Assembly: GCF_020169415.1 (NCBI RefSeq)
Contig: NZ_JAIULG010000028.1
Coordinates: 1-56,950 of the forward strand
Direction of reading: 5' to 3'
Length of the DNA stretch: 56,950 bases
Source of the DNA: Tsukamurella sp. M9C
Lineage (GTDB): Bacteria > Actinomycetota > Actinomycetes > Mycobacteriales > Mycobacteriaceae
Under the pieces are notes generated by a model. The model saw nothing but the letters and a program-made list of their open reading frames with translations. It ran no database searches and was not told the DNA's origin. Position 1 is the first letter of the stretch; the number at the start of each line of letters is the position of its first letter. Below are positions 308 to 56,949 of this stretch, in pieces. Position numbers and translations under genes: made by a program.

Positions 308-778
308 GTGACATCGACCAACGGAAGCGGCGGCGAATCCCGCCCGGCCGCCACCCGCTCCCGCAGCAAGCGCTCCGGCGACACCCGCACCGCCGCCCCC
401 GGCACCGTCCGGGCCGCGGGCGTGATCGTCGCGCTCGAGGGCCTCGCGGCCCTGGTCCTCGGCGTGGTGGAGCTGATCCGCGGCATCACCGGCTCGGCCG
501 ACACCACGACCGGCGCCTACGGCATGGCCTTCTGGATGATCCCGATGGGCCTCGGCGTGCTCGCGGGCGGCATCGCGCTGCTCCGCGGCTTGCGCTGGGG
601 GCGCACCGTCGGCGTGCTGACGAACCTCCTGCTCGGCTTCGCGGGCATCAGCGGCGCGGTCTCGCAGGGCCGCCCCGAGTTGTTCATCCCGCTCATCGTG
701 GTCTCGGTCGCGGCGCTCGGACTGCTGTTCGCCCCGCCGACGGTGGCCTGGCTCGAGGGCGAGTACCGCCGGGACTGA
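308..778 (+). CDS. Small integral membrane protein, unknown function
   Basis: A 156-residue protein with a polar, Ser/Arg-rich N-terminal tail of about 35 residues followed by four hydrophobic segments (roughly 37-57, 71-90, 97-115 and 125-143). It ends in a short charged tail. I recognise no catalytic motif or named family. The GTG at 308 is preferred over upstream in-frame codons because those would run back over the divergent lipid-kinase gene and because TACCCT lies 6 nt upstream. Transcribed away from the lipid kinase and convergent with the phosphatase at 785. Confidence 0.7.
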   Translation: MTSTNGSGGESRPAATRSRSKRSGDTRTAAPGTVRAAGVIVALEGLAALVLGVVELIRGITGSADTTTGAYGMAFWMIPMGLGVLAGGIALLRGLRWGRTVGVLTNLLLGFAGISGAVSQGRPELFIPLIVVSVAALGLLFAPPTVAWLEGEYRRD

Positions 779-784
779 TCGGGC

Positions 785-1399
785 CTACCGCCCGGAGTAG
801 TGCGCGGCCGCGTAGCCGGTCAGACCGAATCGGCTGATCTGCGGGACGTCGTCGCGGTCGAATCCGAATACGGCGGCCGAGGCGGGCAGGATCATCATGT
901 GCCGCCCGAACTCCGGCGCCTGGCCCAGGAACCGCGCGGTGAGCACCCGGCCCAGGTGGCCGTGCGCGACGAGGACGACGTCACCGTCGGCCATCGCGGC
1001 CCGCGCCCGGGCCAGCACCCGGTCGGCCCGCTCCGCCACCTGCGCCAGCGTCTCGCCGCCGGGGGAGCCGGACTCCCACACCGTCCACCCCGGATCGTCG
1101 ACGCGGATCTCCGCGCTGGTGCGGCCCTCGTAGTCGCCGTAGTCCCATTCGGCGAGGTCGGGATCGACCGCCGTCACCGTCAGGCCCGCGAGCTCCGCGG
1201 TCGCCGCCGCCCGCGCCCGCGGGCTCACGAGCACCGTGGGGTCCGCGAGCGCGAGGTCCGCGAGGACGGGGCCCAGCGCCTTCGCCTGCTCGACGCCCGT
1301 CTCCGTCAGCGGCACGTCGGTGGCGCCGGTGTGGCGTCCCGAGCGCGACCAGGCGGTCTCGCCGTGGCGGATGTACACGAGGCGGTGTCCGGTGCTCAT
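785..1399 (-). CDS. Histidine phosphatase family protein (Rv3214/Gpm2-like)
   Basis: 204 residues. The catalytic RHGE motif is at residues 11-14, with the phosphorylated histidine at 12. Downstream are the supporting WDYGDYEGRTSAEI segment and a second histidine in VLVAHGHLG, which completes the phosphate pocket. The family covers phosphoglycerate mutases and broad-specificity phosphatases. The M. tuberculosis homologue next to Rv3213c acts as an acid phosphatase, and I infer the same here. The ATG at 1399 is chosen because the RHGE strand follows at once; upstream in-frame codons would overlap the divergent parA start. Substrate unknown. Confidence 0.88.
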   Translation of the reverse strand: MSTGHRLVYIRHGETAWSRSGRHTGATDVPLTETGVEQAKALGPVLADLALADPTVLVSPRARAAATAELAGLTVTAVDPDLAEWDYGDYEGRTSAEIRVDDPGWTVWESGSPGGETLAQVAERADRVLARARAAMADGDVVLVAHGHLGRVLTARFLGQAPEFGRHMMILPASAAVFGFDRDDVPQISRFGLTGYAAAHYSGR

Positions 1400-1424
1400 C
1401 CGTCCATCGTTCCGTATCGGTGGG

Positions 1425-1430
1425 TACCCT
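1425..1430 (+). promoter_or_regulatory. -10 element of the parA-like gene
   Basis: TACCCT ends 6 nt before the ATG at 1437, so the transcript would start on the A of the start codon (leaderless). Confidence 0.5.
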
Positions 1431-1436
1431 CGCACC

Positions 1437-55173: not shown

Positions 55174-55579
55174 GGTGTTCCTTTCGCCGGTGCGCATGCC
55201 AGGACACAGCCCGATTGGGGCGGAGGTGTCGGGGAAAGACATGGACCGTGCCTTCTCTGTCGGGCACGGCGGTGGGCTGAGGACGATCGCTCAACCGGCT
55301 TCGGCGACGTGGTGCGTCACGCTGGAAGCGGTCCGGCGCCCGAGGAAGATGCTCTCGTTTCGGCGGCGGGCCCACACATACGCGGTGGTTCGTGGATTCA
55401 ATTGTGTTCCCGCTGAGCGGGTCGAGATGAACACTAGGGGCCTATCGGCGCGGTGTCATCCCCGCCGCGGGACGGTCGCGGTTTGATAACGCTTCGGTCA
55501 CGATCGGCTGTGAGGACCGTAAGACCAGGTCACCCCGGAGATCGCTAGCAATAGCTTGCATAGGCAATGACCTGCGAAA

Positions 55580-55595
55580 AGTGATGGCAATCACA
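55580..55595. promoter_or_regulatory. CRP/GlxR-like binding site upstream of rpf
   Basis: AGTGATGGCAATCACA differs from TGTGA-N6-TCACA only at the first base. Crp (Rv3676) in M. tuberculosis and GlxR in Corynebacterium are known to control rpf genes, so the location is meaningful. Its distance from the rpf start (about 400 bp) implies a long leader. Confidence 0.6.
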
Positions 55596-55671
55596 AGGGA
55601 AATGTGGCTCCCGTCACGGAGCACGAGGTTACGGAACGGTGTACGTGATCGCGCCTCGACCGACGACGAAC

Positions 55672-55707
55672 GGCGGCGGTGCCGGCCTTTCCGCCGTCAC
55701 CGCCGCC
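55672..55707 (-). terminator. Candidate terminator of the TGT-like gene
   Basis: GGCGGCGGTG (55672-55681) pairs with CACCGCCGCC (55698-55707), about 25 bp past the stop at 55732. Confidence 0.5.
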
Positions 55708-55731
55708 GTCCGGCAGCGCTCTTCTCCGTCG

Positions 55732-56949
55732 CTAGTGCGCGGTCGCCACGACGTCGCCGTCGTGGTCGTCCACCCGCCCGCTACTGGTGGCTCCGCCGCC
55801 GCTGAAGCGCTGCAGGAAGGCGTCGCGGTACGCGGGGAACCGTCCCTCGTCGATCGCGCGCCGGGCCCCGGCGGTGAGCGCGGTGAGGAACCGCAGGTTG
55901 TGCCGGGTCACCGCCTGCACCGCCGACGGTGCGTCGGTGCGGTAGAGGTGGTGCACGTACGCGCGGTTCGGAGACGGTGCCGCCCCGTCCCGATCGGGGG
56001 CGGCGTCGAGCGGACGCACGTCGTCGCGGAAGGGCCGCGTGGACACCGCGATGGGACCGTCCGCCGTCAGCGCGATTCCGCGGGTCGCGAGGTCCTGCGG
56101 CGCCGGGGATTCGATGAGATCGACGCCCGCGCCGATCGCATGCAGCAGTTCCTCGGGTCCGCGGACCGCGGCGAGGTACCGCGGAAGGTCCGCGTCCAGC
56201 GCCGCGGTGAGCAGGACGAGCGCATCGCCGGCCTGCGGATCGGTCGCGGCGCCGACGACCCGGACGCCGCCGAATCCCAGTCCGCCGGAACGGACGTCCT
56301 CCTCGTGGCGGGCGAGCAGATCGCGCAACGCGGCCCGGTCGTGGGCGAGGCGCAGGGGAACAGTGGCCCACAGCGACATCTCGCCCCGTCGCAGCGCAGT
56401 GAGCCAGTTGTGCTCGGCGAGAGCGCGCCGGGCGCCGCTCGCCGCCGCAGGTGCGAAGACGACGTCGCCGCCCAGCCGGTACGCCGCAGTGACGGCAGCG
56501 GCCGGATCGGAGGACGGGGCCGAGACGTCCACGAACAGTGGCAGATCCCACCCCGCGAAGGCGGCGAGGCCGCCGGCCTCCTCGACGGTCTCGGCGCCGG
56601 GGTGGAGTCCCAACCGGGCCCCGTCGACGGTGACACCGCTCGCGCCGAGCCGCGCGGCCGACGCGGGATCCACGCCCGGGATCGCGGCGAGCGGCGCGGA
56701 TGCCACGAAGGCCGGCGTCGCGATCGCCCGGTAGGCCGTGTGCAGCGTCCCCGAGCGCGCGGCGTCCGATCCGCCCGTGACCTCGAAACGCACCGGGTCG
56801 GTCACGGATTCGGCCTGCAGCCGGGCGTGCGCGGAGAGCGATCGGTAGTCCGAACGCAGCTCGGAGAGCTCCGCCGCCAGCGCGCGATTGCTCGCGCGCA
56901 GCTCCGCCAGTTCGGCCGTGCTCCGCGGGGCCTGCGGCGCCCCGCGGAG
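55732..56949 (-). CDS. Degenerate tRNA-guanine transglycosylase-like protein with N-terminal coiled coil, partial (5' end off the right edge)
   Basis: At least 405 residues, open to the window edge. The TGT domain begins near the in-frame GTG at 56805: FEVTGGSDAARSGTLHTAYRAIATPAFV, then LHPGAETVEEAGGLAAFAGWDLPLFVDVS, GVDLIESPAPQDLATRG, and NRAYVHHL...TRHNLRFL. These align with bacterial TGT. In that alignment the nucleophile Asp of GIDMFD is Glu, SGGFQ/SGGYQ is lost, the FDE and GIQQG motifs are gone, and the three zinc cysteines are absent while the fourth ligand His remains. The 48 codons upstream of 56805 stay in frame and encode a Leu/Glu heptad helix, so the real start is probably outside the window. 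The stop is at 55732. Confidence 0.68.
   Translation of the reverse strand, partial: LRGAPQAPRSTAELAELRASNRALAAELSELRSDYRSLSAHARLQAESVTDPVRFEVTGGSDAARSGTLHTAYRAIATPAFVASAPLAAIPGVDPASAARLGASGVTVDGARLGLHPGAETVEEAGGLAAFAGWDLPLFVDVSAPSSDPAAAVTAAYRLGGDVVFAPAAASGARRALAEHNWLTALRRGEMSLWATVPLRLAHDRAALRDLLARHEEDVRSGGLGFGGVRVVGAATDPQAGDALVLLTAALDADLPRYLAAVRGPEELLHAIGAGVDLIESPAPQDLATRGIALTADGPIAVSTRPFRDDVRPLDAAPDRDGAAPSPNRAYVHHLYRTDAPSAVQAVTRHNLRFLTALTAGARRAIDEGRFPAYRDAFLQRFSGGGATSSGRVDDHDGDVVATAH

What the first reader, a model, noticed from the sequence alone, without database searches (positions are those of the whole stretch)
603..55931. A non-palindromic 9-mer, GCACCGTCG/CGACGGTGC, is enriched about 25-fold across the window
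By eye I count about 23 copies of GCACCGTCG and about 22 of CGACGGTGC on the plus strand. From base composition (about 70% GC) one or two in total would be expected. Orientation is balanced, and copies lie in many unrelated genes and several reading frames. Read as GAC-GGT-GC it gives Asp-Gly-Ala with the otherwise rare GGT codon; read as GCA-CCG-TCG it gives Ala-Pro-Ser with the rare GCA codon. This suggests DNA-level selection that bends codon choice. The base before GCACCGTCG is mostly G or C. Extra 8-mers with one end base changed also occur. Density (about one per 1.3 kb) and frequent close inverted pairs recall DNA uptake sequences (Neisseria, Haemophilus) or cyanobacterial HIP1. Balanced orientation argues against KOPS or Chi. 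I know of no such element described in Mycobacteriales.
Basis: partly seen in the sequence, partly recalled or inferred. Interest (0 to 1): 0.78.

Follow-up and report, generated by a model that had tools for sequence, protein, structure and literature searches.

The report
Genus-wide DNA watermark in Tsukamurella
A nine-letter DNA word is scattered thousands of times through the genomes of the soil and opportunistic bacterium Tsukamurella and kept in place even where it forces odd codons, much like the sequence tags that some other bacteria use to recognise and take up their own kind's DNA.

Summary
GCACCGTCG occurs 46 times in the window (23 per strand; dinucleotide shuffles give 3.9) and 3203 times in the 4.73 Mb genome (reversed control 64). 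Against a codon-shuffled null it has the largest z of all 9-mers (375 vs 59.5); intergenic DNA is enriched too (26 vs 2.4). The genus is Tsukamurella. All 15 other held genomes carry 827-4002 copies; 13 of them and G000 are denser than any of 395 other genomes drawn from the phylum. Codons inside the word are conserved better than the same codons elsewhere (odds ratio about 6; control words 1.1-1.3). There is no strand or spacing pattern and no excess of close inverted pairs. Gains and losses hit many positions and no methyltransferase of two families tested is genus-wide, against HIP1-type repair. The word is thinner in lineage-specific DNA and scarce in a plasmid backbone, two phages and one inserted element. 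Best explanation (about 50%): a DNA-uptake-type watermark built up by uptake bias, perhaps via Tad pilus and ComEA/ComEC. Receptor unknown; transformation in Tsukamurella unproven. The searches made listed no earlier description.

The parts
603..611 (+). GCACCGTCG site
2204..2212 (-). GCACCGTCG site
2942..2950 (-). GCACCGTCG site
3335..3343 (+). GCACCGTCG site
7032..7040 (-). GCACCGTCG site
7084..7092 (+). GCACCGTCG site
7095..7103 (-). GCACCGTCG site
7297..7305 (+). GCACCGTCG site
7985..7993 (-). GCACCGTCG site
10652..10660 (+). GCACCGTCG site
11399..11407 (+). GCACCGTCG site
13097..13105 (+). GCACCGTCG site
14328..14336 (-). GCACCGTCG site
16395..16403 (-). GCACCGTCG site
17326..17334 (+). 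GCACCGTCG site
17342..17350 (-). GCACCGTCG site
18053..18061 (-). GCACCGTCG site
18068..18076 (+). GCACCGTCG site
19987..19995 (+). GCACCGTCG site
20331..20339 (+). GCACCGTCG site
21662..21670 (+). GCACCGTCG site
23707..23715 (+). GCACCGTCG site
24329..24337 (+). GCACCGTCG site
24550..24558 (+). GCACCGTCG site
26458..26466 (-). GCACCGTCG site
28782..28790 (+). GCACCGTCG site
28987..28995 (-). GCACCGTCG site
30580..30588 (-). GCACCGTCG site
31816..31824 (+). GCACCGTCG site
32615..32623 (-). GCACCGTCG site
33618..33626 (-). GCACCGTCG site
33742..33750 (+). GCACCGTCG site
34067..34075 (-). GCACCGTCG site
38013..38021 (-). GCACCGTCG site
40796..40804 (+). GCACCGTCG site
43194..43202 (+). GCACCGTCG site
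44116..44124 (-). GCACCGTCG site
44209..44217 (-). GCACCGTCG site
44497..44505 (-). GCACCGTCG site
45093..45101 (+). GCACCGTCG site
49323..49331 (-). GCACCGTCG site
49424..49432 (+). GCACCGTCG site
49483..49491 (-). GCACCGTCG site
52239..52247 (-). GCACCGTCG site
54128..54136 (+). GCACCGTCG site
55924..55932 (-). GCACCGTCG site

Best explanation
GCACCGTCG is a genus-specific DNA self-watermark of Tsukamurella that works like the DNA uptake sequences of Neisseriaceae (DUS) and Pasteurellaceae (USS). Proposed steps: (1) a surface DNA receptor, probably a component of the Tad/Flp pilus, which in Micrococcus luteus is the competence pilus, binds double-stranded DNA best when it carries the 9-mer in either orientation; (2) the DNA passes through ComEA/ComEC and recombines with homologous chromosomal DNA; (3) because fragments with the word are over-represented among incoming DNA, point mutations that create the word spread and mutations that destroy it are overwritten, so it builds up by molecular drive, mostly at synonymous or tolerant positions of shared genes and less in newly acquired DNA. 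Shown here: the hyperabundance, its genus restriction, maintenance at the DNA level, balanced strands and random spacing, gain and loss at many positions, lower density in lineage-specific DNA, and presence of ComEC in 16 of 16 and of two T2SSF (TadB/TadC-type) genes in 14 of 16 genus genomes. Inferred: that the cell takes up DNA, that the word biases uptake, and which protein reads it.
For: Copy number and density in the range of DUS/USS: 0.68 per kb here, up to 0.82 per kb in the genus; USS spacing about 1 kb and DUS in thousands of copies (PMC7811141, PMC3630211, passages seen). Non-palindromic, balanced strands. Largest z of all 9-mers over a codon-shuffled null; five of six frames and intergenic DNA clearly enriched. 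Codon-matched conservation OR 5.7-6.0, z 8.5-8.8 in each of four relatives; 12 control words OR 1.1-1.3. Density 484/Mb in DNA of one species only vs 786/Mb in DNA shared by five; for USS the reported contrast is 0.58 vs 1.08 per kb (PMC7811141). Motif-poor 0-60 kb of pTpau01 (9 copies) beside a motif-rich siderophore-type island (35 in 39.8 kb) (split chosen after seeing the counts); phages TIN2/TIN3 3 and 2 in their first 50 kb; no copy in the 12.6 kb L271 that holds an element inside the T. sputi pilin gene. Presence patterns across five species look un-tree-like by eye, as recurrent gain/loss or recombination would give. ComEC in 16/16 genus genomes; a ComEA-like protein beside ComEC in G000; Tad locus in G000 with TadA, two T2SSF proteins, DUF4244 and a TadE/G-like protein. 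T2SSF has no match in exactly two of 46 genomes searched, G006 and G007, the two of the genus with the lowest density, 165 and 265/Mb vs 425-817/Mb. M. luteus needs tad genes for transformation (PMC4322843, abstract and passages).
Against: No report of natural transformation in Tsukamurella turned up, but the search was thin (no paper with both terms; 10 of 361 listed, none naming Tsukamurella; open papers only). The classical receptor type is missing: no N_methyl type IV pilin in 15 of 16 genus genomes. ComEC and T2SSF also occur in other genera without the hyperabundance, so they cannot be the specificity factor alone. G006 and G007 are one clade in a one-protein tree, so the Tad/density link is a single contrast, and sp. 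8F (G007) still has the word as its top coding 9-mer (45 vs 9.6). T. paurometabola and T. sputi have an interrupted DUF4244 gene yet 425 and 587/Mb. No excess of close pairs and no intergenic excess by share (26 of 401 copies in 9.4% of the DNA). No dialect in six other Tsukamurella samples. Single-species DNA is still clearly enriched (38 vs 5.7); pTpau01 as a whole (441/Mb) and the 61 kb contig of G013 (450/Mb) are not depleted; TIN2 has 3 copies where 1.0 is expected. Retention between species barely falls with divergence, which no simple model here explains.
Confidence: 0.5

Rival explanations
1. Chromosome-organisation element: the 9-mer is the binding site of an abundant, genus-specific nucleoid or chromosome-structuring protein that needs a site about every 1.5 kb, and selection on chromatin keeps it.
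For: Spread with Poisson spacing, presence in plasmid DNA too, DNA-level conservation, genus restriction. Enrichment also in single-species DNA (38 vs 5.7 expected) fits a need for sites everywhere.
Against: No strand or spacing pattern; each of thousands of sites would need measurable selection, which is hard without a drive mechanism (inference). No candidate protein found, and none was systematically sought.
Confidence: 0.22
2. HIP1-like by-product of methylation and repair: a DNA methyltransferase or sequence-specific mismatch repair converts near-matches into the word.
For: HIP1 of cyanobacteria is similarly abundant and tied to methyltransferases (PMC4390886, abstract and section 2.6 seen). 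Near-matches with changed end bases are enriched, and deviations from HIP1 are likewise most frequent at its ends.
Against: Not a palindrome. In 137 sites aligned in five species, 9 polarised single-base gains fall at motif positions 1, 2, 3, 7, 9, and of 32 places with the word in four of five, 24 single-base changes fall at positions 1, 2, 3, 5, 6, 7, 8, 9 (8 of them at position 3), not one editable base. C5 methylases (PF00145) are absent from G011 and G015, which have 3261 and 2136 copies; PF01555 in only 4 of 16. Other methyltransferase families were not searched.
Confidence: 0.1
3. Chi-like recombination signal for AdnAB or RecBCD (the window itself holds an AdnA-AdnB-like pair).
For: Chi sites are over-represented words (recalled); AdnA/AdnB-like helicase-nucleases lie at 18018-24615.
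Against: Balanced strands: 185+170 in the sampled contigs and 23+23 in the window, 208 of 401 in all (p 0.48); contigs were not tested one by one (largest imbalances 37/26 and 4/10) and their replichore is unknown. Known Chi are leading-strand biased (recalled). Other genera have AdnB relatives at 51-60% identity with the word only at background.
Confidence: 0.06
4. Codon-context or protein-level artefact: the word follows from favoured tripeptides and codon pairs in a GC-rich genome.
For: Four sister genera also show about 2- to 3-fold excess over codon shuffling, so part of the excess is context.
Against: Five of six frames clearly enriched and intergenic 26 vs 2.4; same-codon conservation inside vs outside the word; genus restriction at similar GC.
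Confidence: 0.02

Closest known systems
DNA uptake sequence (DUS), Neisseriaceae
   Same: Short non-palindromic word, thousands of copies, both strands, in genes and out of them, richer in shared DNA, clade-restricted
   Different: Receptor is type IV minor pilin ComP (abstracts listed); here no N_methyl pilin in 15/16 genomes; no excess of inverted pairs; no dialects seen; uptake not shown
Uptake signal sequence (USS), Pasteurellaceae
   Same: 9-bp core, about 1 per kb, lower density in strain-specific DNA (0.58 vs 1.08 per kb; here 0.48 vs 0.79)
   Different: No strong extension beyond the 9 bases, whereas USS has AT tracts; different phylum; uptake not shown
HIP1, cyanobacteria
   Same: Hyperabundant genome-wide word, function unsettled, clade-wide
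   Different: HIP1 is a palindrome linked to methyltransferases (PMC4390886); here non-palindromic, no genus-wide methyltransferase in the two families tested, no single editable position
Chi and KOPS/AIMS words
   Same: Over-represented chromosomal short words
   Different: Those are strand-biased along the replichore (recalled); here balanced

Membership tests
DNA uptake sequence (DUS/USS kind) | Short non-palindromic word in about 1 copy per kb, both strands | tested here: met
DNA uptake sequence (DUS/USS kind) | Clade-restricted over-representation | tested here: met
   13 of 15 relatives plus own at 425-817/Mb; highest of 395 other genomes drawn from the phylum 266/Mb (read by eye, rounded sizes); G006 (165) and G007 (265) overlap that range
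DNA uptake sequence (DUS/USS kind) | Higher density in shared than in strain-specific DNA | tested here: met
   786 vs 484/Mb pooled over five genomes of five species, which are not independent
DNA uptake sequence (DUS/USS kind) | Competence machinery (ComEC plus pilus) present | tested here: met
   ComEC 16/16; T2SSF pair 14/16; ComEA-like gene beside ComEC in G000
DNA uptake sequence (DUS/USS kind) | Type IV minor pilin receptor (ComP kind) | tested here: not met
   PF07963 absent in 15 of 16 genus genomes
DNA uptake sequence (DUS/USS kind) | Inverted pairs at transcription terminators (seen in Neisseria, passage) | tested here: not met
   gaps exponential, 33 vs 29.8 under 120 nt; single copies between convergent genes 7 in 7.7 kb vs 13 in 28.0 kb tandem and 5 in 15.5 kb divergent, a hint on few sites
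DNA uptake sequence (DUS/USS kind) | The word raises DNA uptake or transformation | not testable with these tools
   needs an uptake experiment
HIP1 | Palindrome | tested here: not met
   sequence itself
HIP1 | Matching orphan methyltransferase in carriers | tested here: inconclusive
   PF00145 absent in 2 of 16, PF01555 absent in 12 of 16; other families not searched
Chi / KOPS | Strand bias along the replichore | tested here: not met
   strands balanced in nine contigs and the window taken together, 208 of 401; no map of origin and terminus was used

The most novel reading that the evidence does not exclude
A DNA-uptake watermark outside Neisseriaceae and Pasteurellaceae: a mycolic-acid actinobacterium whose Tad pilus, not a ComP-type pilin, reads a 9-bp word, with phages and integrative elements that insert into the putative Tad pilin gene and so may switch uptake off, while the word decays in the clade that lost the pilus.
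Probability: 0.4. Interest if true: 0.88.

Novelty: new variant of a known kind. Interest (0 to 1): 0.77.

Why it matters
Uptake watermarks are known (to me) from two Gram-negative families. A third origin, in a phylum with a different cell envelope and a different pilus, would show that biased DNA uptake evolves repeatedly and would give a direct test of the molecular-drive model. It would also mean that a genus of opportunistic bacteria exchanges DNA in a self-selective way, and the word itself would be a ready marker for foreign DNA in these genomes. If it is not an uptake sequence, then a DNA element with thousands of copies, conserved across a whole genus, has no known function, which is just as open.

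Tried and rejected
Strand signal: none overall; position on the replichore was not mapped. Regular spacing or close-pair excess: none. Longer motif: extension beyond 9 bases is weak once codons are taken into account (+1 G, +3 C). The truncated core CACCGTC outside the 9-mer shows weak extra conservation in the nearest group (OR 1.66, z 3.4) and none clear in the other three (1.19, 0.99, 1.50; z 1.0, -0.1, 0.8). Dialects in six other Tsukamurella samples or other hyperabundant words of this kind in samples of 52-100 kb from four sister genera: none seen. ComEC break in the lowest-density genome G006: the two halves lie at contig ends, so an assembly break rather than a lesion. C5 and N4/N6 methyltransferases as partners: patchy. 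RNA-level function: copies in genes are 186 sense and 189 antisense. Insertion sequences: 8 copies in 42 kb of 14 loci around IS-type DnaA-like ATPase genes, low but flanks included.
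Full report
What is there. The window has 46 exact copies of GCACCGTCG, 23 on each strand, against 3.9 in dinucleotide shuffles. The genome that holds the window (G000, 4,731,977 bases, 110 contigs) has 1515 + 1688 copies; the reversed word has 33 + 31. 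In 617 kb of this genome (window plus 29 fetched stretches longer than 5 kb; the 11 contigs shorter than 1 kb that were also fetched entered only) my gene caller found 556 genes; 375 of 401 copies lie in genes, 26 between them. Shuffling synonymous codons within each gene leaves 59.5 copies instead of 375, the largest z (40) of any 9-mer (40 shuffles). By reading frame the excess is 42-, 3.2-, 14-, 6.0- and 10-fold in five frames (61, 114, 11, 53 and 135 copies); the sixth has one copy (0.1 expected). Intergenic DNA has 26 copies where Markov models of order 1 to 3 expect 2.2 to 3.4. So this is a DNA-level feature and not a protein or codon effect, although about 2- to 3-fold excess over codon shuffling is also seen in four sister genera and belongs to general sequence context.

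Who has it. G009 has contigs of 4,379,918 and 99,806 bases, the sizes published for Tsukamurella paurometabola DSM 20162 (PMC3156402, passages seen); six other handles match named Tsukamurella contigs by length. All 15 other genus genomes carry 827 to 4002 copies; 21 other genera of the family carry 52 to 669 and 24 other genomes of the order 51 to 713. Per Mb the genus runs 165 (G006), 265 (G007), then 425 to 817. Of 395 other genomes drawn across the phylum the densest has 266/Mb (G123; my reading with its rounded sizes), so G006 and G007 do not stand out, while the other 13 relatives and G000 do. At one shared locus (the AdnB neighbourhood) six named Tsukamurella, the same genomes as six of the handles, have 385-1175/Mb, and 74 loci of 13 other genera, pooled by genus, have 0-171/Mb. 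GCACCGTCG is the top coding 9-mer in each of six further Tsukamurella samples, sp. 8F and the plasmid included; it is not in the top list of any of four sister-genus samples, and no other word there comes near its z.

How it behaves. Strands are balanced (208 of 401 on +, p 0.48); gaps fit an exponential (392 gaps, mean 1514, CV 1.02), so spacing is random and close pairs are at chance. Copies in genes are 186 sense and 189 antisense. Orthologous DNA shows that the word is kept: own sites survive in relatives at 0.67-0.81 where control 9-mers of equal GC nearby survive at 0.23-0.48, in 9 of 15 relatives; in the closest relative G005 it is 0.71 vs 0.57, it falls to 0.21-0.46 vs 0.09-0.21 in G008, G012, G009 and G007, and it is 0 of 2 vs 0.17 in G006. 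With the amino acid held constant, the same codon is conserved better inside the word than outside it: odds ratios 6.03, 5.85, 5.68, 5.72 (z 8.5-8.8) against four relatives over a 200 kb region, while 12 other abundant 9-mers give 1.12-1.30 (z 1.2-2.9). The otherwise poorly kept codons GGT and GCA show it most plainly (GGT 24/30 inside, 73/247 outside, against G014). In the window itself the effect is strong in the two nearer groups of relatives (z 8.7, 8.1) and weaker in the distant ones (z 2.9, 2.1).

How copies come and go. Of 239 places with the word in at least one of five species, 137 align in all five; 21 have it in all five, 34 in one. By eye the patterns are often not tree-like. Nine polarisable single-base gains involve motif positions 1, 2, 3, 7 and 9; of 32 places with the word in four of five, 24 are single-base changes at eight of the nine positions, eight of them at position 3, and 8 differ at more than one base. 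This is not what one editable base would give, and it argues against a repair-driven HIP1 analogue. Retention between species hardly depends on divergence (0.66 and 0.79 at 94% identity, 0.59 and 0.69 at 87%), which I cannot explain fully; a mixture of stable and fast-turnover sites, or recombination, would do it.

Where it is thin. Pooled over five genomes the density is 786/Mb in DNA shared by all five and 484/Mb in DNA found in one only (438 in 557 kb, 38 in 79 kb; 634 and 679/Mb for the classes between; Poisson p about 0.0008, genomes not independent), still well above the within-class expectation (38 vs 5.7). In the T. paurometabola plasmid the first 60 kb have 9 copies and the last 39.8 kb have 35 (binomial p 1e-7, for a split chosen after seeing the counts); an IS256 transposase is annotated at 59.1-60.4 kb, and beyond it lies an NRPS/PKS island of siderophore type. 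The plasmid as a whole (441/Mb) and the 61 kb contig of G013 (27 copies in 60 kb) are not depleted. The first 50 kb of phages TIN2 and TIN3 have 3 and 2 copies (TIN2 expects 1.0). The 12.6 kb stretch with an element inside the T. sputi pilin gene has none.

What it may do. Thousands of non-palindromic, randomly placed, strand-balanced, clade-specific copies that are richer in shared DNA match DUS and USS best; USS density is likewise lower in segments absent from other strains (0.58 vs 1.08 per kb, PMC7811141, passage). Machinery: ComEC is in 16 of 16 genus genomes but also in all 30 other genomes searched, so it is necessary at most. A ComEA-like protein (SLBB + HHH) precedes ComEC in G000. 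A ComP-type receptor is not available, since N_methyl pilins are absent in 15 of 16. In the actinobacterium M. luteus transformation depends on Tad/Flp pilus genes (PMC4322843, abstract and passages). G000 has such a locus: TadA, two T2SSF proteins, a DUF4244 small protein taken here as the pilin (inference from its place and size), and a TadE/G-like protein. T2SSF has two matches in each of 14 genus genomes and none in G006 and G007, which are also the only two of all 46 genomes searched without a match and the two of the genus with the lowest word density. A DUF4244 match is missing only in G006 of those 46 and is partial in G007. In G007 the locus keeps only the end of the DUF4244 gene and a TadG-like piece near the flanking helicase gene, with low-GC DNA (DUF6119, DUF2971) upstream and no match to tadZ, tadA, tadB or tadC in the 8 kb read. 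G006 and G007 form one clade in the AdnA tree (100/99), so this is one event, and G006 is a fragmented assembly. The link is a lead, not proof.

Rivals. A chromosome-structuring protein would explain uniform spread and presence in plasmids, and I cannot exclude it; no binding protein was sought systematically. A methylation/repair origin is disfavoured by the mutation pattern and by the patchy methyltransferases tested (PF00145, PF01555); other methyltransferase families were not searched. Chi and KOPS are disfavoured by strand balance, with the limit that no origin-to-terminus map was made.

Novelty. Five searches of the held open library bear on this: one search found no paper with both Tsukamurella and 'DNA uptake sequence'; none with the word's letters; two searches listed 2 and 5 papers, none about such a word in Actinomycetota by title and abstract start; one search listed 10 of 361, none naming Tsukamurella. 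Subscription papers are not covered. I rate it a new variant of a known kind (uptake-type hyperabundant words), with the mechanism unproven.

Noticed in passing
L268 4873-6383 (T. paurometabola), L271 412-12386 (T. sputi), L270 530-4111 (Tsukamurella sp. 8F): The DUF4244 (putative Tad pilin) gene is interrupted in 3 of 16 genus genomes: beside a large serine recombinase and a phage capsid gene (prophage), by an 11.8 kb element with a different serine recombinase, and by low-GC DNA with tadZABC not found. Recalls the prophage in Listeria comK (recalled).
   Followed up: partly
L071-L075 (pTpau01): Plasmid looks like a mosaic: motif-poor 0-60 kb and motif-rich siderophore-type island, with an IS256 transposase at the border. 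The word may help to source DNA.
   Followed up: partly
G123, G274, G084 (one genus of 1.7 Mb genomes, family f30): GCACCGTCG at about 266, 179 and 101/Mb with 31, 45 and 14 reversed-control copies; G123 is the densest outside Tsukamurella.
   Followed up: no
G007 and G009 samples: The palindrome TCGTCGACGA is raised (22 vs 2.7 and 12 vs 1.0).
   Followed up: no
orthologous 200 kb of G005, G004, G003, G013, G014: Retention of the word between species hardly depends on divergence; unexplained.
   Followed up: partly
window 18018-24615: Adjacent UvrD-helicase/PD-(D/E)XK nuclease pair, AdnA-AdnB-like; ordinary for mycolata (recalled).
   Followed up: no
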